From: Methanococcoides methylutens
GTDB lineage: Archaea; Halobacteriota; Methanosarcinia; Methanosarcinales; Methanosarcinaceae
DNA length: 64,000 bases
Direction of reading: 5' to 3'
Assembly: GCF_000765475.1 (NCBI RefSeq)
Contig: NZ_JRHO01000014.1
Coordinates: forward strand, 93,574 to 157,573
The notes beneath the pieces were generated by a model. That model had not been told where the DNA came from, did no database searches, and saw only the letters and a program-made list of their open reading frames with translations. Numbering within the stretch: the stretch's first letter is position 1; each line of letters opens with the position of its first letter. A program made the translations under genes and the position numbers. Positions 34,302 through 47,146 of the stretch are shown one piece after another.

Positions 34302-37037
34302 TCATTTCAATTTTGGATCTCTATATTTTCCCCTGCTTTTTCTTATACGTGCAGCTACCACTTTATATTCGGGACACAAGGCATCACTGTCGCAAATATC
34401 AGATGTTAAATTATTGATCATAACCTCAGGAAAGTGGAAAGTAGTACTTAATATTCCTTTTTTTACCGCAGTTGAGATTCGGGCTTTGATATCTACTTTC
34501 CCGCGTGGTGATTCTACACAAACCATGTCGCCACTGTTGATCAAATATTCTTTTGCATCATCGGGGTGTATCAAAAGTACATCTTCAGCGATCAGTTGTT
34601 CATTGGGCGTACGACGGGTCATTACTCCACTGTTGTAATGTTCCAGTCCACGGTTAGTTGTAACAATGAAGGGATAATCTTTGCTATGTTCCTGTAGCTC
34701 CACCGATTCCTTATAGGTCTGCTTATAAAATGTCCCCATACCTCGTTTAAATGTTTCTTTATGTAATATGGGAGTATCAATGCCGCCATCATTCACAGGC
34801 CACTGCAATCCGTTCTCGCCCAGATTTTCCCAGGTAATGCCTTTAAAAAAAGGAACAATTTGAGCAATTTCATTTAATACGCCTTGTGCAGAGTAATCCG
34901 GTTGCGGATAACCCATGCACTGCATGATCTCTGTGAGTACCTGTCCATCGGGTTTGGTGCCGGGTAAATGTTCAACCACTCTGTTCACGCGTTGTACACG
35001 ACGTTCTCCATTGGTGAATGTACCTTCTTTCTCCAAAAACGAAGCACATGGCAATATAACGGTTGCGAGCTTAGCGGTTTCGGTCATAAACAATTCCTGA
35101 ACCACCAGGAGATCCAGTTTGCTCAATGCTTTTATCACCATTTGGGTATTCGGATCTGTTTGTACCACATTTTCCCCAATGATCCACATCGCTTTCAGTT
35201 TATCCTGTAGCGCAGATTCGTACATCTGTGGAATTTTATAACCGATATGTTTGGGTAGTTTGGCACCATAAAAATTCTCATACAAGGCATGCATTTCATC
35301 GTTGGTCACATCCAAATAACCGGCACCCTGATCTGGCTGACAACCCATATCTGCTGCACCCTGCACGTTGTTTTGTCCACGTAATGGATTTACACCCACG
35401 CCCGGACGACCGATATTGCCAGTGATCATGGCCAGATTGGCAATCAACATAACAGTTGAGGTTCCCTGTGAATGTTCGGTTACTCCCAATCCATGGAAAG
35501 ACATCGCATTTTTTGCGGAGCCATAAGCAATTGCCGCTTCACGCACAAGATCGCGATCCACACCAGTTATACTTTCCAATTCATTAATATTCAGCGAGAG
35601 AATATGTTGTTTAAATTCTTCAAATCCTTCGGTGCGTTGTTCTACAAATGAAATATTAACTAAATTTTCTTTAATAATATAATAAAAGAAAAGATTCAGC
35701 ATGGCCACATTGGTACCGGGTTTTAGTTGCAGATGATAATGTGCATAACGGGCCAGTTCGGTTTTACGAGGATCAATTACGATCAGTGTTGTGTCCTTTA
35801 TGGCAGCCTGCTTAATTTTTGCACCTGTAACCGGATGTGCATCGGTAGGATTGGCTCCGATCACCAGCATACAATTGGTGCATTTAATGTCTTCAATAGA
35901 ATTGGTAGCGGCACCGGTGCCAAAGGTGCGTTGCATGCCTAAGGCAGTGGGAGAGTGGCATATACGAGCACAGCCATCAATATTGTTAGTGCCGATCACT
36001 GCACGCATAAATTTTTGCATCAGATAATTTTCTTCGTTGGGACAACGTGATGATGAAATACCGGCAATGTGATCAGGTCCATTTTCTTTAATGATCTCAT
36101 TCAGTTTAGAGGTGATAAAATCATAGGCTTCATCCCAGGTGGCTTCAACAAATGCACCATTCTTTTTGATCAATGGTGTTCTGATACGATCGGGGTGATT
36201 ATAAAACGAAAATGCAAATCGCCCTTTTAAACACATGTGACCAGGATTAACTTTGCTATCCCACGGGGCTTGTATCGATTTTACTTTTCCATCTTTAACA
36301 GATACATCTAAATTACATCCTACGCCGCAATAGGTGCAAATGGTTCGGATCTTTTTATCCACAACAATGGATTTGGATTCATATACATCCGATATTGCAG
36401 AAGTAGGACAGGCTTGCGCACAGGCTCCACAACTTACACAAGACGATTCTATAAAGGATGTATCCATACCTTTTATGATCCTGCTTTCAAATCCTCTGCC
36501 GGCCATACTTAGCACAAACATTCCCTGAACTTCGTCACAGGCTCTTACACAACGTGAACAATTGATGCATTTAGACAGATCTGAAGTCATGTAAGGATGA
36601 CTCAGGTCTTTGGTTCTGTTCAAATGATCTTTACCGGCCGGGTATCGTGCATCTCTCACACCCACACGTGCAGCTACTTCCTGCAGCTGGCAATTGTTGT
36701 TCACTTCACAGGTTAAACAATCCAGCGGATGGTCGGTAAGTACTAATTCAATAATATTTCTACGCAATTTTAAAATGCGTTCTGATGAAGGATAGATGTG
36801 CATTCCTTCTGCGACCGGTGTATGACACGAGGCCACCACTTTAGTGGGCCCGTCTTGTTTTAATGCAACATCTACACTGCACACTCTGCAGGCACCAAAG
36901 GGTTTTAGGTGGCTCACATCACATAAGGTCGGAATTAGTTTATCACCTTGTGAACGTTTCACAAATTGTAATATAGTTTCGCCTTCCTGAATGGCGTGTG
37001 GATGATCATTGATATAGGCTAGTTTGTTCATGTGCAT
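34302..37037 (-). CDS. fdhA: NAD-dependent formate dehydrogenase, catalytic alpha subunit (bacterial type)
   Basis: Oxidises formate to CO2 at a molybdenum or tungsten bis-MGD centre. 911 residues. NuoG-like N-terminus: 2Fe-2S ligands C39, C50, C53, C71; a His-Cys 4Fe-4S site H103, C107, C110, C116; two ferredoxin clusters at C157-C167 and C200-C210. Catalytic part: 4Fe-4S site C234, C237, C241, C269 (CTYCGVGC), active-site C360-H361 in ARICHSPTA (cysteine, not selenocysteine), C-terminal molybdopterin cap. No Shine-Dalgarno site before the ATG, unlike neighbouring archaeal genes. The protein resembles bacterial (FdsA-like) enzymes and not the F420-dependent FdhA of methanogens. An intact gene; transfer from bacteria is inferred. 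Confidence 0.9.
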   Translation of the reverse strand: MHMNKLAYINDHPHAIQEGETILQFVKRSQGDKLIPTLCDVSHLKPFGACRVCSVDVALKQDGPTKVVASCHTPVAEGMHIYPSSERILKLRRNIIELVLTDHPLDCLTCEVNNNCQLQEVAARVGVRDARYPAGKDHLNRTKDLSHPYMTSDLSKCINCSRCVRACDEVQGMFVLSMAGRGFESRIIKGMDTSFIESSCVSCGACAQACPTSAISDVYESKSIVVDKKIRTICTYCGVGCNLDVSVKDGKVKSIQAPWDSKVNPGHMCLKGRFAFSFYNHPDRIRTPLIKKNGAFVEATWDEAYDFITSKLNEIIKENGPDHIAGISSSRCPNEENYLMQKFMRAVIGTNNIDGCARICHSPTALGMQRTFGTGAATNSIEDIKCTNCMLVIGANPTDAHPVTGAKIKQAAIKDTTLIVIDPRKTELARYAHYHLQLKPGTNVAMLNLFFYYIIKENLVNISFVEQRTEGFEEFKQHILSLNINELESITGVDRDLVREAAIAYGSAKNAMSFHGLGVTEHSQGTSTVMLIANLAMITGNIGRPGVGVNPLRGQNNVQGAADMGCQPDQGAGYLDVTNDEMHALYENFYGAKLPKHIGYKIPQMYESALQDKLKAMWIIGENVVQTDPNTQMVIKALSKLDLLVVQELFMTETAKLATVILPCASFLEKEGTFTNGERRVQRVNRVVEHLPGTKPDGQVLTEIMQCMGYPQPDYSAQGVLNEIAQIVPFFKGITWENLGENGLQWPVNDGGIDTPILHKETFKRGMGTFYKQTYKESVELQEHSKDYPFIVTTNRGLEHYNSGVMTRRTPNEQLIAEDVLLIHPDDAKEYLINSGDMVCVESPRGKVDIKARISTAVKKGILSTTFHFPEVMINNLTSDICDSDALCPEYKVVAARIRKSRGKYRDPKLK

Positions 37038-37093
37038 TGAATTTGTTTCAACATTCTGATTAGCTATTGTTTATAGTTGAATGTGAAAATGGT

Positions 37094-38743
37094 TTATTTA
37101 ATGTAATCTTTTAATTCTTTGTCAAAGTAGTGTAGCGCATTTTTAACGGGCAAGGGCAGTCCGCCTCCCAAAGCGCATAAAGAGCCTTGTTGCATAGTGT
37201 CCAGTAAGTCACCAAATAATTGCTCATCTATTTTGTAATTGCTTTCAGTTGCTTTTTGTAGTAGCTCAAAGCCACGTGTAGAGCCTAATCTGCAGGGGAA
37301 ACATTTTCCGCAGCTTTCATGTGCCACGAATTGGAACAAGTGCTGTATGTATTCGATCATCGGGAAGCTTTCAGGAATACTTACAATAGAAGCATGCCCC
37401 AATAAAAAGCCATTTTCAGCAAAGGATTCAAATGAGATATGTAAGGAGTTGATCATTGATACCGGAACCAAGCCCCCCAATGGACCTCCAATATGCAAAG
37501 CTTTTATATCGCTTTTGAAGCCACCGCCCAATTGTTCAATTACGGTTTTAAGAGGAGTGCCCATCTCAACTTCATAAATCCCGGGTTTATTAAAGAAACT
37601 ATCCAACGAAACCAATTTGGTGCCTTTAGATTGTGAAGAGCCAATCTGGTTAAACACATCGCCACCTTGTTCAACAATAAAGGGAACATTGGCAAAGGTT
37701 TCAACATTGTTCACCAGCGTAGGCATATTAAATAGACCTTGTTGTGCCGGGAAAGGTGGACGAATACGTACTTCGGGGCGTTGTCCTTCTATGGATGAAA
37801 GCAATGCAGTTTCTTCACCGCATACGTAGGCACCCTGAGCTTTGATCAACTTAAGTCGGAACGAGAAACCTGAGTTGAGAATATTATCTCCCAGTATATC
37901 CAAATCTTCCAGTTCACTGATGCTTTGTTTGATGATCATTTGTGATTCGGGATACTCGGCTCTGATATAGACTACACCAGTATTCGCACCAGTTACGTAA
38001 CCCGTTATCAGCATGCCTAATAAAACTCTCAACGGTTGTTGTTCCAGTAAATAACGATCAGAGTAAGCCCCAGGATCACCCTCATCGGCATTGCAAACAA
38101 TGAATTTACGTTTGCCTTCAGCTTTTTTAGTAGCTTCCAGCTTAGATCCCATCGGGAAACCGGCACCGCCGCGGCCTCCTAACTGTGCTTTCTTGATCTC
38201 ATCCAGAACTTGATCAGGACTTAGCGTAAATAAGTCTTGTAAATGTTTAGTAAAAGTTTCAACAGTCAATGCGGTTTGCATTAAGATGACTGTTCCTAAC
38301 GCTTGAGTTGCATATGCTTCTTTTGTAGCAACTTTTGATTTAATTACTGAAGCAATGTCATCAATATCCTTACCCGAATAATTATGCCCTTTGTAGTAGA
38401 ATGCACTATTCTCGTGGCATCTGCCCAGGCAACTCATTTCACCGATCTCATCTTCTTTCAAATGCTTTTTTAATTCATTTTTTGTCCGTGACTGTGTACC
38501 GGCGCATAAGCAAGCGTTTCCGTTGCATACATATGCTTTTTTGTTTTTGTTTTCAGGTCGGAGAAGATCATAAAATGAAAGCGTGCCATAGACATTGGCT
38601 TCACCCATTAGATTGTCTTTAGCAATTTGTTGTATCTCCTGCGCATCAGGCGTAACGCTCGCTTCAGCCAACTGACCTAATTTCTCAAACAGGTTTTCAT
38701 GTAAACCTTTACGACCGGATAAATAACTTAAATTTTCTGACAT
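37094..38743 (-). CDS. NuoE-NuoF fusion: NADH-reacting diaphorase subunit of formate dehydrogenase
   Basis: 549 residues. Residues 1 to about 145 are a NuoE/FdsG-like thioredoxin domain with a 2Fe-2S site (C73, C78, C105, C109). From about 150 it is NuoF/FdsB: FMN loop GGRGGAGFPMGS (189-200), NAD-binding NADEGDPGAYSDR, then the SLBB region and a C-terminal 4Fe-4S site ESCGKCFPCRLG plus a later cysteine. It takes electrons from the alpha subunit and reduces NAD. No Shine-Dalgarno site, and 56 bases upstream of the alpha gene, so the two form an operon. The fusion lets two genes encode what is three subunits (FdsGBA) in many bacteria. Confidence 0.9.
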   Translation of the reverse strand: MSENLSYLSGRKGLHENLFEKLGQLAEASVTPDAQEIQQIAKDNLMGEANVYGTLSFYDLLRPENKNKKAYVCNGNACLCAGTQSRTKNELKKHLKEDEIGEMSCLGRCHENSAFYYKGHNYSGKDIDDIASVIKSKVATKEAYATQALGTVILMQTALTVETFTKHLQDLFTLSPDQVLDEIKKAQLGGRGGAGFPMGSKLEATKKAEGKRKFIVCNADEGDPGAYSDRYLLEQQPLRVLLGMLITGYVTGANTGVVYIRAEYPESQMIIKQSISELEDLDILGDNILNSGFSFRLKLIKAQGAYVCGEETALLSSIEGQRPEVRIRPPFPAQQGLFNMPTLVNNVETFANVPFIVEQGGDVFNQIGSSQSKGTKLVSLDSFFNKPGIYEVEMGTPLKTVIEQLGGGFKSDIKALHIGGPLGGLVPVSMINSLHISFESFAENGFLLGHASIVSIPESFPMIEYIQHLFQFVAHESCGKCFPCRLGSTRGFELLQKATESNYKIDEQLFGDLLDTMQQGSLCALGGGLPLPVKNALHYFDKELKDYIK

Positions 38744-39193: not shown

Positions 39194-39868
39194 TTAAATG
39201 TTTAAAATAAATGAATATTTTGGCTTTGTAGAAATCCTTATCCACACAAAAAACACAGTCTTGACATACCTGTCAAGATTGTGTAATATCACTTTGAATT
39301 TGACTTCCTTTACCTGATTTCTATACTTCCTTGCTCTCAAATTTTCCCCATATTTTCTTTTCAAAACAGAAAACATCGTTTCACTCAAATTCCGCAGAGA
39401 ATATATTTCCTCATCAAATTCATGCAGCATTTTCTTTCGAGATCTCCCCTTAATCCTTTTTCTTTCACGTTGTCGAAGTTGAACAATGGCTATCGATCAG
39501 AGTTTTTCTCGTGTTAATTCGTGAATATATTCAGAATCATAGGATTTGTCCATCACATAATATCTTGATCTTCTGTTGCGATGACATTGCTAAAGCAATG
39601 TCTTTGCATGTTTTGCATCATGAACAGGTTTACCTGATATTTTGTACCCAGTTATGACAAATTTCCGCACATCAACTGAAATACTGGTCTTGACATAATT
39701 TCGTCTCCATTTTTTGATTCTCCAGGAATAATAATTGCTACAATAACCACTTGTAAACCCCGTTGAATCAATCCCAGTGACTTCAATTGATTCGCCATTC
39801 TTGTAAAATAGATCTAATGTTCTCTTAAAGATACGATCAAGAAATGCAGAATAGATTCGAGTAATCAA
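39194..39868 (-). pseudogene. Decayed IS transposase (IS5/IS4-like DDE)
   Basis: One reading frame with two in-frame stops, TAG at 39590-39592 and TGA at 39497-39499. Before them: EVTGIDSTGFTSGYCSNYYS and KKWRRNYVKTSISVD, the region around the first catalytic Asp. Between them: SRYYVMDKSYDSEY with the second Asp. After them: [21 protein letters not shown] with the catalytic Glu. The N-terminal part is missing; the remnant abuts the 3' end of the ABC ATPase gene. The frame runs into the terminal repeat at 39232. Inactive by sequence. Confidence 0.85.
39232..39244. repeat. Insertion-sequence terminal repeat
   Basis: GGCTTTGTAGAAA, identical to 47295-47307 and close to 7885-7896. It marks the right end of the transposase remnant. 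Confidence 0.6.
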
Positions 39869-40653
39869 CTACTTACACCCACATCAAGCTGCTTTAGAGG
39901 CATAACATATGGAGTTTCAGCATGATTATAGACATGTGCTTCAACTCCATAGACCTTTGCTATGTTTTCAGTTGTAAGTACCTGAGAAGGTTTCCCGGCA
40001 GAAACTACCTTACCATCTTTCATCATCAAGATCTGATCTGAGTACCTTGAAGCCAGATTGAGGTCGTGTACAGCCATTAAAGCTGTGACTTTTTTTTCAC
40101 TAACAAGCCTTTGCACACTCTCCATAACATCCAGCTGGTGCCATATATCCAGATTACTGGTGGGTTCATCAAGTAAAATGACACCTGTGTCCTGTGCCAG
40201 TGCCCTTGCAATGAGGATCTTTTGTTGCTGCCCTCCGCTCAGTTCATCGAAACTACATAATGCAAGGTCCTCAATACCCATCTCCTCAAGCACCTGCCAG
40301 ACCTTTTCTTTATCGATTTCATTGTTGAACCAGCCAATATGAGGCCTTCTTCCCATCAGAACGGTCTCAAAAACCGTCGTGGGAAAGATCCTGTTGGAAC
40401 TCTGAGGAACATAAGCAAGATTCCTTGCAACCTCCATGCGCTTCATGTGCTTTAAATTACATTCGTCAATATGTATATCACCTGAATTAGGCATTAAGAT
40501 CTTGTTGATACACTTAAGCATGGTCGATTTTCCAGCGCCGTTAGGACCCACAATGCTCACAAAACTTGACCGATAGATATCAACAGATACATCTTCCAGT
40601 ATTGGTGTACTGCCATAGCCAAAGCACATATCCCTTATCTTTATTTTCACCAT
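39865..40653 (-). CDS. ABC importer ATP-binding protein, iron/cobalamin (FecE/BtuD) type
   Basis: 262 residues from the ATG at 40653; GGAG lies about ten bases upstream inside the permease tail. Walker A GPNGAGKST, Q-loop YVPQSSN, signature LSGGQQQK, Walker B VILLDEPTSNLD and the switch histidine in AVHDLN. HmuV/FecE/BtuD-type ATPase. One base separates the permease stop from this start. Its stop codon touches the transposase remnant, so the operon's end was shaped by the insertion. Confidence 0.92.
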   Translation of the reverse strand: MVKIKIRDMCFGYGSTPILEDVSVDIYRSSFVSIVGPNGAGKSTMLKCINKILMPNSGDIHIDECNLKHMKRMEVARNLAYVPQSSNRIFPTTVFETVLMGRRPHIGWFNNEIDKEKVWQVLEEMGIEDLALCSFDELSGGQQQKILIARALAQDTGVILLDEPTSNLDIWHQLDVMESVQRLVSEKKVTALMAVHDLNLASRYSDQILMMKDGKVVSAGKPSQVLTTENIAKVYGVEAHVYNHAETPYVMPLKQLDVGVSS

Positions 40654-40654
40654 A

Positions 40655-41776
40655 TTACCAGAACTCCTTCTTTTTCTTTTTAAGTATAAGATACATGAAA
40701 AAAGGTACTCCAAGCAGAGAGGTCATAATTCCCGTCGGTATCATTGTAGGTCTCAGTATGTTCAGGCCAGTAGCATCTGCTGATATCAATATGAGAGCTC
40801 CGAGTAATCCAGAGGCCGGGAACAGGTATTTGTGATCCGAACCTACGACCATACGTGCCATATGGGGTGCAACAAGTCCTATAAAGGCGATCGTTCCTGT
40901 AAAACAAACAACTGTCGCTATCAGAAGGCTTGCAAGAAGCATACTGAACATTCTTACCCTATTTGCATCGATACCGAGGCTTTTGGCATTTTCATCACCT
41001 ATTGCCATTATGTTGAGATCATTCACCTTCAGGTAAAGCAAAGGAGTACAGAAGACAAATACACCAAGCAGAAGTGCGAAATTGCTCCATGAAAAAGCAG
41101 AAAGGTCACCCATACCCCAGCTAACCATTATTCTCAACTGTTCATCCGTGGCAAAATATCGAAACAGGTCACTGAGAGATCCGAACAAATAATTTATCGC
41201 AATGCCTGCAAGAATCAGGGTTTCGGAAGTTGCACCTTTAAAACTTGCAAGAGCAATTATGAACAGTGCACATAACATTGAAAAAAGGAAGGCATTTCCC
41301 ACCAGAAGGTATGGACCTCCCATAACACCTACACCCATTACAGCTGCTACAGCCACACCAAAATTCGCTCCGGAAGAAATACCCAGAGTGAAAGGACTTG
41401 CCAGCGGATTTTTAAGAACTGCCTGCATTACACACCCACATATCCCCAACCCGAAGCCTGCCATTATACCAGCAACAATGCGTGGAAGACGAATATTCCA
41501 TACGATCTGTGAAGGTAGTCCTTCACTGGCAAAATAGCTAGGGAATAAACTGGAAAGTAATATTTTATAGACCTCCGACACTGAGATCTCAAGTGGGCCA
41601 ATTGTAACTATAAAAGCTGAAAGGAAGGTTACCAGACCTAACATGCAAACGAGGAAAAAGAGTTTTTTCCCCACATAACGTTGGTAACCTTCCCTTGCCC
41701 GAGAATTCTTCTCATACCCGGAAATTTTAATATTTTCCGATTTGGCATTATGTTGTTTTTTAAAAGGATTTTGCAT
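40655..41776 (-). CDS. FecCD/BtuC-family ABC permease
   Basis: 373 residues from the ATG at 41776 (an upstream start at 41830 is also open). About ten transmembrane helices, with the FecCD signatures RLPRIVAGIMAGFGLGICGC and GTIAFIGLVAPHMARMVVGSDH (latter over about residues 295-316). Type II importer permease for iron-siderophore, haem or corrinoid complexes. Forms one unit with the adjacent ATPase and binding-protein genes. Confidence 0.92.
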   Translation of the reverse strand: MQNPFKKQHNAKSENIKISGYEKNSRAREGYQRYVGKKLFFLVCMLGLVTFLSAFIVTIGPLEISVSEVYKILLSSLFPSYFASEGLPSQIVWNIRLPRIVAGIMAGFGLGICGCVMQAVLKNPLASPFTLGISSGANFGVAVAAVMGVGVMGGPYLLVGNAFLFSMLCALFIIALASFKGATSETLILAGIAINYLFGSLSDLFRYFATDEQLRIMVSWGMGDLSAFSWSNFALLLGVFVFCTPLLYLKVNDLNIMAIGDENAKSLGIDANRVRMFSMLLASLLIATVVCFTGTIAFIGLVAPHMARMVVGSDHKYLFPASGLLGALILISADATGLNILRPTMIPTGIMTSLLGVPFFMYLILKKKKKEFW

Positions 41777-41875
41777 ATTTTCACCATCAAAGATAAAAGA
41801 GGATATGATCCCGGAAACTTCAAATATCACCGATTCATATCCTCCACAATCCTATATTCCAGTAAACAAACTGGA

Positions 41876-43156
41876 TCAATTGACCTCTTTCAGGAAAGGC
41901 TGGTATTCTGCCATTTCGGTATAAACACCATCAATTCCCAGGATTTGCCTATATACCTCATTTCCTTCTGCTTCCAGGTCAAGGTCCCTGAACTCTTCCG
42001 GATGCAGGCATTTTGCCATGTACATCATATTCAAAAGGCTCCTGTCCAGAGGCCTGCCTCTGCAGTATGGATAGATACAGGAATACACATTATTGTTACT
42101 TACAGCAGGGATCTCTGAAAGTTCGGCGGTCTCCATTACAAAATCAACACCGTTTGGTTCACCCAATGCTGAAGTGGAGGACCATGAGACAAATATGTAA
42201 TCAGGCTCCCATGCAACAATCTGTTCCGGTGGGACATTGACGTTCTCGCCAGTACAATCTCTTGCAACGTTTGTACCACCTGCTATGTCCAATGGCTCAT
42301 AGACCGCTTCTGTGCGGGTGAAATCCCTCCCTTCAACAGAATCATAGAAACCTTTCTTGGCACCCCTTGGTGCAAAATAGACCGTTGGTTTCTCACTATC
42401 TTCGAGCTGTGAGGTCACAGATTCGATCATATCAACCTTTGAACGCACATAAGCCTCCAGTCCAACGGCCTTCTCCTGCCTATCCAGAACATTGCCCATC
42501 AAACTGATGTGCTCATAACTTTCAGCAAAAGTAAAACCTGCACCTGCATCAACACAAGGACAACCGACCTTCTCTTCGATCAGGTCTCCCCTGTTGTACC
42601 AGGTTGCATCGAAAACGACATCTGGCTTAAGTATCGCCATGGTTTCATAATCGATCTCTTTACGGGTATTTGTTTCCGGAAGATCATCGAGCTGGCCTCC
42701 ACCATATATCTGGAGGGATTCCCACGCATTCTTAGCTATTTTCTCATCGTTTCCATCTCTTGGCAGGATGCATCCGGAACATGTACACTCATCAGTAGAA
42801 ACCATTTTGTCAAGATTACCAAGAGCGATTACCATCCTGGAATTGTCAGGATTGGTTGTGATAATTCTCTCTACGGGCCTGTAGAAAGTCACTTCCCTGT
42901 CATGACTATCAGTTACTGACTTTGGACTGCCATTCCAGAAGGTAAGTATGTATGAAGCATCACCTACATCATCAAGTGAATATGAGCTGTCATCGAGCAT
43001 GTAATCACATACAGCACCTGAAACCTCATCTTCAATAAGTATACCATCGCCGTTGTCACATGGAAGATTTGATGGCAATGCCGCTGCGTTCATGACAGAA
43101 ACAATCAAGCATGTAACCATTAATATTCCAGCTAAAAGCTTTGATCTGGACATCAT
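41876..43156 (-). CDS. Substrate-binding protein of iron/corrinoid ABC importer, with N-terminal Ca-loop motif
   Basis: 426 residues. Signal peptide (about 1-27), then an EF-hand/dockerin-like loop DNGDGILIEDE (about 34-44), then a TroA/BtuF-like two-lobe fold: RIITTNPDNSRMVIALG, LKPDVVFDATW, WEPDYIFVSW. Two cysteine-rich insertions (CTCSGC near 124, GCPC near 198) are uncommon in this family. ATG overlaps the previous gene's TGA (ATGA). Presumed extracellular, anchored weakly by the signal region. Ligand could be corrinoid, haem or a metal chelate. Confidence 0.85.
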   Translation of the reverse strand: MMSRSKLLAGILMVTCLIVSVMNAAALPSNLPCDNGDGILIEDEVSGAVCDYMLDDSSYSLDDVGDASYILTFWNGSPKSVTDSHDREVTFYRPVERIITTNPDNSRMVIALGNLDKMVSTDECTCSGCILPRDGNDEKIAKNAWESLQIYGGGQLDDLPETNTRKEIDYETMAILKPDVVFDATWYNRGDLIEEKVGCPCVDAGAGFTFAESYEHISLMGNVLDRQEKAVGLEAYVRSKVDMIESVTSQLEDSEKPTVYFAPRGAKKGFYDSVEGRDFTRTEAVYEPLDIAGGTNVARDCTGENVNVPPEQIVAWEPDYIFVSWSSTSALGEPNGVDFVMETAELSEIPAVSNNNVYSCIYPYCRGRPLDRSLLNMMYMAKCLHPEEFRDLDLEAEGNEVYRQILGIDGVYTEMAEYQPFLKEVN

Positions 43157-43767
43157 TCCTTATCACCTCTGGAATTAGATCTCCTGAAAACAAGCAAGCA
43201 ACCAATGATCGCCATTGAGGCTAAACATAAGCCAAACCCCGGTGCCTTTGAAGTCGAAGCATACTCAGGCCCTTCTGAAACAGATGTGTCAACGGCAGAA
43301 GCAGAGATAGTAACAGGATCTGCGTTCGGATCTGTTACCGGGATCCACCTCTCCTTGCCTTCATTGAGGTCCTGGGTCTGGAAAAGCATATCAACCCAAT
43401 ATCCTTCAAATGCATTTTCTTCATTTCCGGAAGGGATTACTTTGTATGTGACCTCATTTTCACCGCTCACAGAAAAAGCGATCTTGCCAGCATCTCTGTC
43501 AACCTTGAAATACTTTGCATCCGAAACCTCTGAGTCATCTTCAGGAAAAGAAAAACCTTCAGGTATGTTCTCCACAATACCAACCATAAAAGGAGTTTCT
43601 CCTGTAATTTCCAGTGTAATTTCAACGCTTTCCCGGGGATTGAAACCGGAAGGAACATTGCGTGTGACCTCCAAAATATCTCCATCCGCAGCAAGAGCTA
43701 CTGGTGAAAACACAGACCCTGCAATTATAAGCAGAGCTAAGTAGATAATAGATCCATTTACTTTCAT
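43153..43767 (-). CDS. PGF-CTERM surface protein
   Basis: 204 residues. Signal peptide (1-27); a compact beta-rich domain with NVPSGFNPRESVEITLEITG (residues about 37-56); a serine/threonine linker; C-terminal APGFGLCLASMAIIGCLLVFRR, the PGF-CTERM signal cut and lipid-modified by archaeosortase A. So it is a lipid-anchored surface protein. Coupled by ATGA overlap to the binding-protein gene, so it probably assists ligand capture. Confidence 0.85.
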   Translation of the reverse strand: MKVNGSIIYLALLIIAGSVFSPVALAADGDILEVTRNVPSGFNPRESVEITLEITGETPFMVGIVENIPEGFSFPEDDSEVSDAKYFKVDRDAGKIAFSVSGENEVTYKVIPSGNEENAFEGYWVDMLFQTQDLNEGKERWIPVTDPNADPVTISASAVDTSVSEGPEYASTSKAPGFGLCLASMAIIGCLLVFRRSNSRGDKE

Positions 43768-43817
43768 TGGAATCCTCCAAAATTTATAAAGAAATTTGAG
43801 ACTTCATTTTCAAACTC

Positions 43818-44582
43818 TTATTTCGACTTAAGTCCTACTAAAAAATCAGCTATCAGATCAACTTCCGGAACTGAGGCCTGGAATTCATCTCCAAGAAGAC
43901 CGGCCTTAAAGACGGACTCATGAATAGGAACAGTAGAGATCACCCGATCATCAGGGATGCCACAACATAATATCTCCTTGCCTGCACCCTCAGCCCTGTT
44001 CAGGATATAGTAAAGCTGTTTTCCGGCATTGTCTGCAAGCTCACTGATCTTTTCAGAAAGACGTATGGATTCATAGGAAGGATCTACCACCATGAAAAGA
44101 ATGTCACAGCCTTCTTCCACACCCCGGCCAAAGTGTTCTATCCCTGCCTCTGTGTCAACGAGAACAAAATCATCCTTACCGATGTCTATGTTCTGTATCA
44201 ACTGTTTTGCAAGAGCACCCATGGGGCATGCACAGCCCTCCCCGAATTCATGGATTTTCCCAACTGCCATCAAAGAAAGATTTCCTTTTCTGCTGACATA
44301 TGCTTCCGGGATGGTCGGAATCTCCCATTTATGATCGAAAAGGGTGAGTTTCTCACCCTTTGGAAAAGCTTCCATCATCTTTTCGACAAGGTTCTTCTTT
44401 CCTCCCAGGAAGTTCAGGAGGTCATCCGGCAATTCCAGACCCATTTGCCTGTGCAGGCCGAAATTGGATTCATCGTTATCTATGACGAGGACATTACAGC
44501 CCCTATCAGAAAGGGACCTGGCGATCAAAGCCGTAAGTGTACTTTTGCCACTACCACCTTTTCCACAGAGCAATGCTTTCAA
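43818..44582 (-). CDS. CooC-like P-loop ATPase (MinD/ParA family)
   Basis: 254 residues from the TTG at 44582, which overlaps the methyltransferase stop (TTGA) and follows AGGAAGTG by six bases; the longer open frame to 44633 adds residues not typical of the family. Deviant Walker A GKGGSGKST (about 7-15), and C117-A-C119 in GEGCACPMG, the CxC metal-binding motif of CooC, the nickel-insertion ATPase of CO dehydrogenase. VDTEAGIEHFGRG is the Walker B region. Here the client may be a metal or tetrapyrrole linked to the adjacent importer (inference). Confidence 0.85.
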   Translation of the reverse strand: MKALLCGKGGSGKSTLTALIARSLSDRGCNVLVIDNDESNFGLHRQMGLELPDDLLNFLGGKKNLVEKMMEAFPKGEKLTLFDHKWEIPTIPEAYVSRKGNLSLMAVGKIHEFGEGCACPMGALAKQLIQNIDIGKDDFVLVDTEAGIEHFGRGVEEGCDILFMVVDPSYESIRLSEKISELADNAGKQLYYILNRAEGAGKEILCCGIPDDRVISTVPIHESVFKAGLLGDEFQASVPEVDLIADFLVGLKSK

Positions 44583-45430
44583 TCCATCACTTCCTGTTCC
44601 CACCAGATCTTTACCCTGGTAGAATGACCACAATCTACAAACTGTCCGTCCTGCGGCTCCAGTGTTTCTTCAAGATAGTTCCTGAGAACCATTTCCTGTT
44701 GTTCTGTATCAATCGTATAGCGGGACCTGAAATAATCGAGCGCCTCATCAATTGAACAAAATGAATTAGTGTATTCAATTGGAAATACGTGCATATCCGG
44801 ATAGATACCCATACTATAGAGCAGATTGTAAAGGACATCGCACTTCGGACCGGGAGTGTATTCCTTTCCATACATGGCAGGCCACAGATTTGTTGAATGT
44901 TCTTCCCATGGCGTTTCTCCTGCAAACCAGTAAAGGCATATATGTCCTGAAGAAGCCATTTGCATCTTTTCTATAGCACTTCTAATATCAGGCATCCCAA
45001 GTGAGAAAGAAGCGATCACAACATCATAGGGACCTTCGAGATCTTCTTTGACATTAAGATCTTCCCACCTTTTGTTGACACAGCCGATATTACTTATTCC
45101 AAAGTTGCTTATGTTCTCCTGTAGAAGTTCCATCATGCCTTTCCCGGGCTCGACAGCAGTCACATGAGCAACTCTCTCTGAAAGAGGAATGGCAAGACTG
45201 CCGGGGCCGGCACCAATGTCCAGCACACGAGAGTCTTCTTTAAGGGGAAGTTCGTTCAATGTCTTTTCAATCCTCCTCTTATTTTCCTGGGACCTTTTCC
45301 AGAAGCGTTCTGCGTTCTCCCTGCTGTCCCAGAGAGTTGCACAGTTTCCACGGTCCTGATGGTCAGCTCTCCGATTGGCCTGCATCATTTCTGTCCAGGC
45401 CATATTCCAATCAACATGAATATTTTTCAT
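44579..45430 (-). CDS. Class I SAM-dependent methyltransferase
   Basis: 283 residues from the ATG at 45430. SAM motif I VLDIGAGPGSLAIPL, acidic residue after strand 2 (TAVEPGKGM), and motif IV YDVVIASFSLGM are visible. The N-terminal RADHQDRGNCATLWDS segment is characteristic of a subgroup often seen beside ABC importers for metal complexes. Substrate unknown. Overlaps the CooC-like gene, so both are made together. Confidence 0.83.
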   Translation of the reverse strand: MKNIHVDWNMAWTEMMQANRRADHQDRGNCATLWDSRENAERFWKRSQENKRRIEKTLNELPLKEDSRVLDIGAGPGSLAIPLSERVAHVTAVEPGKGMMELLQENISNFGISNIGCVNKRWEDLNVKEDLEGPYDVVIASFSLGMPDIRSAIEKMQMASSGHICLYWFAGETPWEEHSTNLWPAMYGKEYTPGPKCDVLYNLLYSMGIYPDMHVFPIEYTNSFCSIDEALDYFRSRYTIDTEQQEMVLRNYLEETLEPQDGQFVDCGHSTRVKIWWEQEVMD

Positions 45431-45467
45431 AATACTACACCACATGTTTTTGAATTGATAACGAGAT

Positions 45468-46706
45468 TTAGTGCACCCTTCGCTTCAAAATAAAAAGAGC
45501 TGATACAAGACCTGCCATTGCAGTGATCGACAAAAAGCCAGGCAGACTTTCACTGGTCTGTACCTGCTCTTCAGGTCCGTACACTACATTGTTTGCATCT
45601 GCAGAAGATGAATCGTTCAGCTCATCATTCATACCAGCAGGGTTGGCCTCTGAAGTGGTTTCATCAACCGTTTCAGACTCACTTTCAGTTGAAGAAGGAA
45701 CTTCAACAACCTTTTCAGTTTCGATCGTAGTTTCAAATACTACATTCATTGCAGGATAGAGCAGGAATCCACCATCTGTACCCATACCTGCTTTTGAGGT
45801 CTTGAGATACCAGTCATCAGTAAAGTATACACTATCATCCATTTCCAGGTGGATCACAGCATCGTTGGACATATTGATACAGTTCTCTGAAACTTCCCTG
45901 CACTTAAGAAGGCCGAATTTGTCACCCTCTTCAATGGAAATTATGTTATCCTTATCCATTAGCCAGGTATATTTGATTATAGCAAAGGATTCAGAAGTGC
46001 CTTTAAAAGTATTCTCAAGATATGTAGCGAAGTAAACCACATCTTCCATTCCTGCGATATTCTCCTTCACAATAAAAGCCCGGTCATCATCGGTTCCATC
46101 CATATCAAGTATGTCTGAATCAAGTTCGTTCCCGTCCTTATAGAGAATTACAAAAGCTTTACCTGCATCTGCATCCAGCTGATCTACTTTCAGGCTGTAA
46201 CCTTTGCCCAGCTCCCAGGATTCGCCTTCCTTGAGTTGCTTCTCTGCGCCTCCACCCTGTTCTGTGACCAGCGTTGTCATCTTACTTGCATCATCATTAA
46301 CAGCGATGTATCTTTTACCGAACAGAGGTATAACAGAATATGTAGAGAGAGCAGTAGCATCTGTTTTTGCACTCAGTTTGAATTTCTTACTGTATGTCTG
46401 AGTGCTATAGATAAGCTCTTTTTTATCAATGACATTGTTAGCAGGTGCTGCACCAATAGCAGAGTTCTCAGAATCAACGTTCCCATAGTAAACTGATTCC
46501 GTATTGGAACCGGCATCATTCAATGCAAAATGTAGAGCACCCCAGTTAGATCCGTCCCAGGTTATAGAAGATACATTCCCACTGTCAAGGATCTCTCCAC
46601 GTACTGTTACCGAGTCTGCAGAGCAGACACCCACAGTAAGAACAATTGATATGAACAGCAACATTGCAATATTTGCTTTTTTAGCCAGTTTGATCTTAAT
46701 AGCCAT
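45468..46706 (-). CDS. S-layer-related (Methanosarcina type) surface protein, PGF-anchored
   Basis: 412 residues (a GTG at 46727 would add seven). Signal peptide (about 10-32), one Methanosarcina S-layer-type domain (about 35-300: RGEILDSG, NWGALHFALND, WELGKGYSLKVDQLDADAGK), a long S/T/E-rich stalk, and C-terminal LPGFLSITAMAGLVSALF plus KRR, a PGF-type membrane anchor. Major S-layer proteins carry two such domains; this has one. GGAGG lies immediately before the ATG, closer than usual, which leaves the start open. First gene of the importer operon. Confidence 0.82.
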   Translation of the reverse strand: MAIKIKLAKKANIAMLLFISIVLTVGVCSADSVTVRGEILDSGNVSSITWDGSNWGALHFALNDAGSNTESVYYGNVDSENSAIGAAPANNVIDKKELIYSTQTYSKKFKLSAKTDATALSTYSVIPLFGKRYIAVNDDASKMTTLVTEQGGGAEKQLKEGESWELGKGYSLKVDQLDADAGKAFVILYKDGNELDSDILDMDGTDDDRAFIVKENIAGMEDVVYFATYLENTFKGTSESFAIIKYTWLMDKDNIISIEEGDKFGLLKCREVSENCINMSNDAVIHLEMDDSVYFTDDWYLKTSKAGMGTDGGFLLYPAMNVVFETTIETEKVVEVPSSTESESETVDETTSEANPAGMNDELNDSSSADANNVVYGPEEQVQTSESLPGFLSITAMAGLVSALFILKRRVH

Positions 46707-47146
46707 TCCTCCTTTTTTAATAAACACACAAATGCTAAGAGCATGAGTAACATCTTTTTAACTATTCATCGCGTTTGGTGTTACTTATTTGCTAAAATGT
46801 CATACTAAATGAGTATTATATATAACTTTGTATTAACGCTGTGACGCTGGAAATTTGTAGAAGGGGTATCAGGCAGCAAATGAAAATAAATTAAAACAGA
46901 AAAAGAATATGAAATTATTTACAGATCAGTATGAATTTGCTCCGCATCCCCAATAGATAAAATCGATTTGTAAAGAGAAACTAATACTCTATCTAATAGA
47001 GATTATCAAATTCGCTTTTCGATTTAAAAGCGAAACTCTTTTTTCAAGATACCCATATCCCCGACTTACTGTTCAAGGGTAAGATTTGAACCCAGAGTGT
47101 ACTATGATAAAAATAATAACAAAAACAGCTTAAAAATGTGTATGTA

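What the first reader, a model, noticed from the sequence alone, without database searches (positions are those of the whole stretch)
39865..46706. Surface-loaded importer operon with CooC-like ATPase and methyltransferase
Seven genes run in one direction with overlaps: S-layer-type protein, methyltransferase, CooC-like ATPase with a CxC metal site, PGF-CTERM protein, cysteine-rich binding protein, FecCD permease, ATPase. CooC inserts nickel into CO dehydrogenase. Its presence in an import operon suggests uptake and handling of a nickel compound, corrinoid or other metallo-tetrapyrrole, captured at the S-layer.
Basis: inference. Interest (0 to 1): 0.55.

Follow-up and report, generated by a model that had tools for sequence, protein, structure and literature searches.

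The report
Predicted nickel-scavenging operon in a methanogen
A seven-gene operon in a methane-producing archaeon looks like a nickel-regulated import system that couples a surface-mounted transporter to a nickel-carrier-like protein and a methylating enzyme, a combination that could help explain how these microbes obtain the nickel they depend on.

Summary
In detail: seven minus-strand genes (S-layer-type protein, SAM methyltransferase, CooC-like ATPase with GCACP, PGF-tailed protein, Peripla_BP_2 binding protein, FecCD permease, ABC ATPase) form one compact operon.

New evidence points to nickel. The promoter holds GTATGAC-N14-GTAACAC (46778-46805), just downstream of a TATA-like box. It matches the published NikR operator GTGTTAC-N13/14-GTAACAC (PMC545781). 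The genome encodes NikR. The genome's two other intergenic sites with at most one mismatch precede the CODH/ACS operon and a second FecCD-methyltransferase operon. In the same genus the site also lies between the divergent NikM/CbiM and CbiO-CbiQ genes. A Bacillota operon with the same CooC-like gene plus FecCD has it too.

The CooC-like gene is not the CODH-operon CooC, which is a separate paralog. Its family sits beside Fec-, Opp/Nik- and ABC-3-type importers and several unrelated SAM methyltransferases in archaea and bacteria.

Best reading: NikR-controlled uptake of a nickel complex. Metal, ligand and methyltransferase substrate are untested; corrinoid or F430 uptake is not excluded.

The parts
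46818..46825 (-). TATA-box-like element TTATATAT, ending 12 bases before the operator
   Evidence: read in sequence, conserved in relatives; function not tested
46778..46805 (.). NikR-type operator GTATGAC-N14-GTAACAC (12 of 14 letters of the published GTGTTAC-[N13/14]-GTAACAC; 13 of 14 in L132)
   Evidence: consensus from PMC545781
45468..46700 (-).
   Evidence: PF07752, TIGR01567; start from SD position and relatives
44579..45445 (-). class I SAM-dependent methyltransferase (MT), one of four full-length family members in this genome
43818..44582 (-). CooC-like P-loop ATPase, GKGGSGKST and GCACPMG; TTG start overlapping the MT stop by 4 bases
43153..43767 (-). small secreted protein with PGF-like tail, no family; possible surface mount of the binding protein (inference)
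41876..43156 (-). substrate-binding protein (Peripla_BP_2) with a degenerate dockerin-like N-terminus read by eye
40655..41830 (-). FecCD-family permease
39865..40653 (-). ABC transporter ATPase of the Fec/Btu type

Best explanation
A NikR-controlled nickel-acquisition operon. When nickel is scarce NikR releases the promoter (inferred from the operator). The SLP and PGF proteins hold or shield the capture machinery at the S-layer (inferred). The binding protein hands a nickel complex, more likely chelated than bare, to the FecCD permease and its ATPase (families shown, cargo inferred). Inside, the CooC-like ATPase takes Ni2+ at the Cys-x-Cys site of its dimer and passes it on to nickel enzymes such as CODH/ACS (inferred from CooC). 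The methyltransferase acts on the organic ligand of the complex, either making it or modifying it so that nickel is let go (inferred; weakest step).
For: Operator matches the published NikR consensus and is the only exact hit in the genome of the GTRTKAC-N14-GTAACAC form that I drew from the operon's own promoters; the two other intergenic hits at one mismatch precede cdhA and another FecCD-ATPase-MT operon (cdhA by NCBIfam). Six of the 11 genomes of the genus carry the CooC-like gene; all six carry a site with at most 1 mismatch by position before its operon. Perfect sites lie between NikM/CbiM and CbiO-CbiQ in 4 of 11 genomes. NikR is encoded. With the literal published consensus, 2 or fewer mismatches: 9 of 70 promoters of operons holding MT or CooC-like genes against 6 of 520 other promoters; 5 of those 6 are the divergent partners of such operons or the cdh region; 200 permuted half-sites reach at most 2. 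The Bacillota locus L029 (CooC-like, FecCD, ATPase, SBP) has sites, and its genome has NikR. The CooC-like family keeps CAC in 54 of 55 rows. Outside help: CobN1 and NikR1 rise in M. marburgensis under nickel limitation (PMC12350162, passages), and a CobN gene lies beside the SBP-MT-CooC-like-FecCD cluster in L109.
Against: 61 of 70 system promoters have no site within 2 mismatches, among them nearly all loci of the large genus g13. Total counts of the pattern are below those of its reversed control (35 against 84 at up to 2 mismatches), so only position and conservation speak. The 9 hits fall into about four independent lineages. The CooC-like gene is missing from the G107 operon. The genome also has a NikM/CbiM-type importer, so this is not its sole route. 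The ATPase's best NCBIfam match is a corrinoid-importer ATPase and the permease's is a B12 permease, both below their cut-offs. No metal, ligand or expression was measured.
Confidence: 0.55

Rival explanations
1. Importer and processor of a metallo-tetrapyrrole (corrinoid, or F430 salvaged as a nickel source): BtuCDF-like uptake, tetrapyrrole methylation by MT, ATP-driven reduction or metal handling by the CooC-like protein.
For: Best NCBIfam neighbours are BtuC (219 bits), corrinoid ATPase (250 bits) and CbiT (44 bits), all below cut-off; the second MT family is nearest BchU. Nitrogenase-like PF00148 pair beside the cluster in L108, CobN beside it in L109. A radical SAM protein fused to a Peripla_BP_2 domain in another FecCD operon of the same genome. 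F430 is a nickel compound, so NikR control would fit.
Against: The CooC-like gene and an MT also occur together with Opp/Nik-type and ABC-3 importers, which suits ions or small chelates better; the nearest solved relatives of the L108 pair are NifE/NifD-type, with protochlorophyllide reductase far weaker; no cobalamin riboswitch in the window; Clostridial and Desulfotruncus relatives make no F430 (recalled).
Confidence: 0.2
2. Iron-siderophore or other non-nickel metal importer, the operator being for another regulator.
For: FecCD/Peripla_BP_2 are named for iron complexes; nearest solved binding protein (2etv, E 2e-22) is labelled iron(III).
Against: Promoter shares its motif with cdhA and NikM/CbiM promoters, and I saw no iron gene among the intergenic hits that I inspected; CooC-type chaperones are known for nickel.
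Confidence: 0.12
3. Dedicated nickel-enzyme maturation: the CooC-like ATPase and MT mature CODH/ACS or another nickel enzyme and the transporter merely shares their regulation.
For: CooC homology; cdh promoter carries the same site.
Against: cdh operon has its own CooC (L047); the tree puts the window family apart from the two other CooC-type paralogs, 98% support; linkage to importers in most archaeal loci outside the IorAB-linked group.
Confidence: 0.1

Closest known systems
FecBCD / BtuCDF-type ABC importers
   Same: Permease PF01032, binding protein PF01497 and ATPase PF00005 all present and adjacent
   Different: NikR-type operator; CooC-like ATPase, SAM methyltransferase and two surface proteins in the operon; below the cut-off of every corrinoid, heme or siderophore equivalog among the matches shown for the permease, ATPase and binding protein
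CooC / AcsF nickel-inserting ATPases of CODH/ACS
   Same: MinD/Mrp-type P-loop with deviant Walker A and a Cys-x-Cys motif; C. hydrogenoformans CooC is the best PDB relative (motif and metal site described in PMC6006190 passages)
   Different: Separate clade, mostly with GKIxxxxEGCAC; outside the cdh operon; paired with importers and methyltransferases
NikMNQO (CbiMNQO-type) nickel importers of archaea
   Same: Same operator type in the same genus
   Different: Unrelated transporter class (ECF); no CooC-like or MT gene seen next to the NikMN/OQ genes in the three loci read
Opine-metallophore systems (staphylopine/Cnt), for the Opp/Nik-type sister loci
   Same: The L008 binding protein scores 146 bits to CntA and 176 to NikA, both below cut-off; sister loci hold SAM enzymes plus ABC-2-type transporters
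   Different: No nicotianamine-type synthase or opine dehydrogenase was found or searched for; window operon has no exporter

Membership tests
FecBCD-type ABC importer | FecCD permease, Peripla_BP_2 binding protein, ABC ATPase in one operon | tested here: met
   288, 133 and 113 bits, all over Pfam cut-offs
Vitamin B12 importer BtuCDF | Equivalog scores over curated cut-off for BtuC and BtuD models | tested here: not met
   219 of 461 and 205 of 334 bits (BtuC models), 250 of 537 (corrinoid ATPase), 135 of 281 (BtuD)
CooC family (nickel-handling MinD-type ATPase) | Deviant Walker A GKGGxGK and Cys-x-Cys | tested here: met
   GKGGSGKST, GCACPMG; CAC in 54 of 55 family rows (L110 degenerate)
CooC family (nickel-handling MinD-type ATPase) | Encoded with CODH/ACS genes | tested here: not met
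   window gene is outside the cdh operon, which has its own CooC in L047
CooC family (nickel-handling MinD-type ATPase) | Ni2+ binding and ATP-dependent release | not testable with these tools
   needs protein
NikR regulon | NikR encoded in the genome | tested here: met
   225 bits against a cut-off of 111 (NF002169)
NikR regulon | Inverted repeat GTGTTAC-N13/14-GTAACAC at the promoter, conserved in orthologs | tested here: met
   12 of 14 letters in the window, up to 13 of 14 in relatives
NikR regulon | Ni-dependent NikR binding and repression | not testable with these tools
   needs EMSA or expression data
S-layer family (TIGR01567) | Score over curated cut-off | tested here: met
   228 against 121.9 bits
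Cohesin-dockerin mounting | Pfam cohesin/dockerin in PGF protein and SBP | tested here: inconclusive
   none listed for window proteins at E<=5; met in relative L008 (cohesin E 1e-9, dockerin E 9e-7)
Tetrapyrrole methyltransferase (CbiT) | Curated cut-off of the CbiT model | tested here: not met
   CbiT 44 of 78.3 bits; window MT fold is generic class I

The most novel reading that the evidence does not exclude
The CooC-like ATPase plus a SAM methyltransferase is a transporter-independent module for nickel release. Archaea and some bacteria plug it into Fec-, Opp/Nik- or ABC-3-type importers; methylation of the chelator loosens the metal and the CooC-like dimer collects it, a way of unloading metallophores of which I found no description for nickel.
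Probability: 0.2. Interest if true: 0.82.

Novelty: new variant of a known kind. Interest (0 to 1): 0.6.

Why it matters
How methanogens take up nickel is stated to be unknown (PMC10617489, passages), and only NikMNQO-, NikABCDE- and NiCoT-type transporters were listed for archaea in 2009 (PMC2667541, passages). A fourth, NikR-marked system with its own metal-carrier-like ATPase and a methylating enzyme would open the question to direct test, since methanogenesis depends on nickel enzymes. The recurrent pairing of a CooC-like ATPase with unrelated SAM methyltransferases and swapped importers points to an undescribed step in metal handling.

Tried and rejected
Filing the operon as a B12 importer: rejected, all BtuC/BtuD/CbiT models stay below cut-off. 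Filing the ATPase as the CODH CooC: rejected. Riboswitches as a cue to cargo: none in the window. In the 9 and 12 loci scanned, the cobalamin riboswitches of L027 lie 1.8 to 3.2 kb from its CooC-like gene, on the other strand, and the L009 FMN and L028 SAM riboswitches are not beside theirs. Cohesin-dockerin mounting in the window: suggested by distant relatives, but no Pfam match in the window proteins. PGF structure: two-sequence alignment gave pLDDT 42, too poor to search. MT structure (pLDDT 72) matches many class I methyltransferases about equally well, so no substrate can be named; nicotianamine-synthase-like enzymes do not appear among the 50 rows shown, which excludes nothing. A genome-wide count of operator sites is not enriched over the reversed pattern; I rely on position, conservation and the permuted-half-site control. 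A 'replacement of NikMNQO' idea failed: the genome has both. Clostridial CooC-like loci were mostly uninformative: 17 rows, few with importer genes, and no NikR found in the two of these genomes tested (L018, L010). Literature: no paper describing this operon or the CooC-like/methyltransferase/importer link was found in searches (open-access library only; Rodionov 2006 not held).
Full report
OBSERVATION. The seven genes are as described. Junctions were read: SLP-MT gap 22, MT/CooC-like 4-base overlap (TTGA), CooC-like-PGF gap 50, PGF/SBP 4-base overlap (ATGA), SBP-FecCD gap 45, FecCD-ATPase gap 1.

CONSERVATION. L007, a Methanosarcinaceae MAG, has all seven in the same order, plus a divergent SBP-FecCD-ATPase-MT set and an FmdE gene. 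L128 is the same contig and was dropped from counts. L132 and L133 of the same genus also have all seven; L130 lacks the SLP label, L127 has the set with extra genes. L135 (G107) has everything but the CooC-like gene: MT and PGF are about 25 bases apart, tblastn finds no convincing remnant, and one search lists no match for G107; in L134 (G106) only SLP and MT are recognised. CooC-like genes at E<=1e-40 occur in 55 of 185 genomes of the order, MT at E<=1e-30 in 92 of 185. MT is the more widespread partner and has four full-length members in this genome (E<=1e-30) plus a fragment.

THE NICKEL LINK. Upstream regions of SLP from the window and six relatives (L133, L132, L134, L135, L140, L127) share a block that begins with a TATA-like box and holds GTATKAC-N14-GTAACAC or a near form. 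The published delta-proteobacterial NikR signal is GTGTTAC-[N13/14]-GTAACAC (PMC545781, passages and its Table 4). In this genome the pattern GTRTKAC-N14-GTAACAC, which I widened after seeing these promoters, has one exact match, the operon promoter (window 46778-46805). Three places have one mismatch: 33 to 60 bases before cdhA, before a FecCD-ATPase-MT-SBP operon on C13, and window 60138, inside an ORF (in G092 the conserved counterpart lies within a 337-aa ORF). Across the 11 genomes of the genus the site recurs with at most 1 mismatch before the CooC-like operon (6 of the 6 genomes that have the CooC-like gene at 1e-40), before cdhA (7 of 11), and, exactly, between NikM/CbiM and CbiO-CbiQ (4 of 11; the window's own genome has a 2-mismatch form there). 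NCBIfam confirms cdhA, cdhC, CbiQ and NikR over cut-off and calls the M component a cobalt CbiM, so 'NikM' is my reading from the operator. L029, a Bacillota MAG, has such sites before CooC-like-FecCD-ATPase-SBP and encodes NikR.

CONTROLS. Promoters of all operons in the loci held (72 holding MT or CooC-like genes and 563 others; after dropping L128 and short stretches 70 and 520 were scored) were scored with the literal published consensus. Two or fewer mismatches: 9 of 70 against 6 of 520. Of those six, three are divergent partners of system operons, two are the cdh region, one is unexplained (L166). Two hundred permuted half-sites give a mean of 0.13 and a maximum of 2 in the 70. An earlier run with GTRTTAC and longer regions gave 8 of 70 and 7 of 519 at one mismatch, 200 shuffles at most 2. 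Against this: 61 of 70 lack a site; the hits form about four lineages; loci were chosen by homology and are not a random sample; and the pattern's total counts are lower than those of its reversed control (19 and 16 against 42 and 42).

THE ATPase. It is CooC-like: C. hydrogenoformans CooC is the best PDB relative, E 2e-18. That protein binds metal at Cys112/Cys114 of the dimer and has Walker A GKGGVGKTT (PMC6006190, passages). The window family has GKGGSGKST and EGCACPMG; the two other CooC-type proteins of the genome read SGCMCP and SGCYCY. In a quick tree of 54 rows (L131 fragment, L110 and L013 left out) the 52 family rows and the two other paralogs fall on opposite sides of a branch with 98% SH-aLRT; both outgroup rows have long branches.

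NEIGHBOURS ELSEWHERE. The family sits with Opp/Nik-type importer and an O-methyltransferase-like MT in L008 (ANME-1) and L114; fused to a TrmO domain beside the same MT type and an ABC-3 permease in Desulfotruncus L027; with FecCD and an MT in L029; with FecCD and a UbiE-like MT in L118, L121, L123; with a flavin-reductase-like protein, MT and FmdE in L129 and L131; with two nitrogenase-component-1-like genes between SBP and MT in L108; with CobN beside the cluster in L109. Eleven loci form a separate clade that, in nearly all cases, lies next to indolepyruvate-oxidoreductase-like genes (named from sequence by eye), so not every member is tied to import. FmdE fused to a 'tRNA methyltransferase' domain is reported in archaea (PMC11237513, passages). 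Sister loci L146, L164, L165, L129 and L140 add PNPOx-like, cupin and ABC-2 genes in varying sets to MT genes, which is why a made-exported-reimported chelator is considered.

HOW IT MAY WORK. Shown: gene content, conservation, operator sequence and its company, family memberships. Inferred: repression by NikR, nickel as cargo, chelated form, CooC-like metal transfer, methylation of the ligand. In the binding-protein family 139 columns are conserved in at least 12 of 13 rows. They include nine arginines, five lysines and five cysteines but one histidine and three methionines, which I take as a hint at an anionic chelate rather than a bare ion. The distant SBPs L107 and L109 begin with a repeated dockerin-like stretch that is degenerate in the window (by eye; Pfam silent). 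L008 has cohesin proteins next to a dockerin-bearing SBP. A surface-mounted binding protein is therefore possible in the window but not shown.

KNOWN AND NEW. Nickel limitation in Methanothermobacter marburgensis raises NikR1, CobN1 and two putative transporters (PMC12350162, passages); the mechanism of nickel uptake in methanogens is described as unknown (PMC10617489, passages); three transporter families were listed for archaea in 2009 (PMC2667541, passages). I found no description of this operon (searches; open-access library only). I rate it a new variant of a known kind: a Fec-type ABC importer with nickel-type control and an attached CooC-like/methyltransferase pair.

Noticed in passing
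window 46700-46706 and the corresponding places in L132, L133, L127, L140: The S-layer-type gene probably starts with ATT: a conserved GGAGG lies 7-8 bases before ATT, while the ATG just after the Shine-Dalgarno is closed by a stop in L132 and absent in L127 and L140.
   Followed up: partly
L041 9263-10108 (G000:C13 near 102700): A methyltransferase paralog in a second FecCD operon has an in-frame TAG at a column where 41 of 48 aligned rows have Tyr or Phe; the genome encodes PylS, so this may be read as pyrrolysine. In G096 another paralog has a TAG at a different place.
   Followed up: partly
L043 9083-10825 (G000:C14, upstream of the window): A radical SAM domain fused to a Peripla_BP_2 domain, next to a UbiE-like methyltransferase in another FecCD operon of this genome.
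   Followed up: no
L027 7548-8792: TrmO (TsaA) domain fused to the CooC-like ATPase in Desulfotruncus arcticus, beside an O-methyltransferase-like gene and an ABC-3 permease.
   Followed up: partly
L108 6574-9770; L146 1-3526: Nitrogenase-component-like genes next to binding proteins, methyltransferases and FecCD genes; the L108 pair (Pfam Oxidored_nitro) lies between SBP and MT-CooC-like, nearest solved relatives NifE/NifD-type; L146 by clustering and eye.
   Followed up: partly
L117, L120, L166: CooC-like gene followed by a flavin-reductase-like gene and a large gene grouped with heavy-metal P-type ATPases, without an importer next to it (P-type identity by eye).
   Followed up: no
window 34302-38743: A molybdopterin oxidoreductase with NuoG-like N-terminus and a NuoF-like protein side by side, as in NAD-type formate dehydrogenases, unusual for a methanogen.
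   Followed up: no
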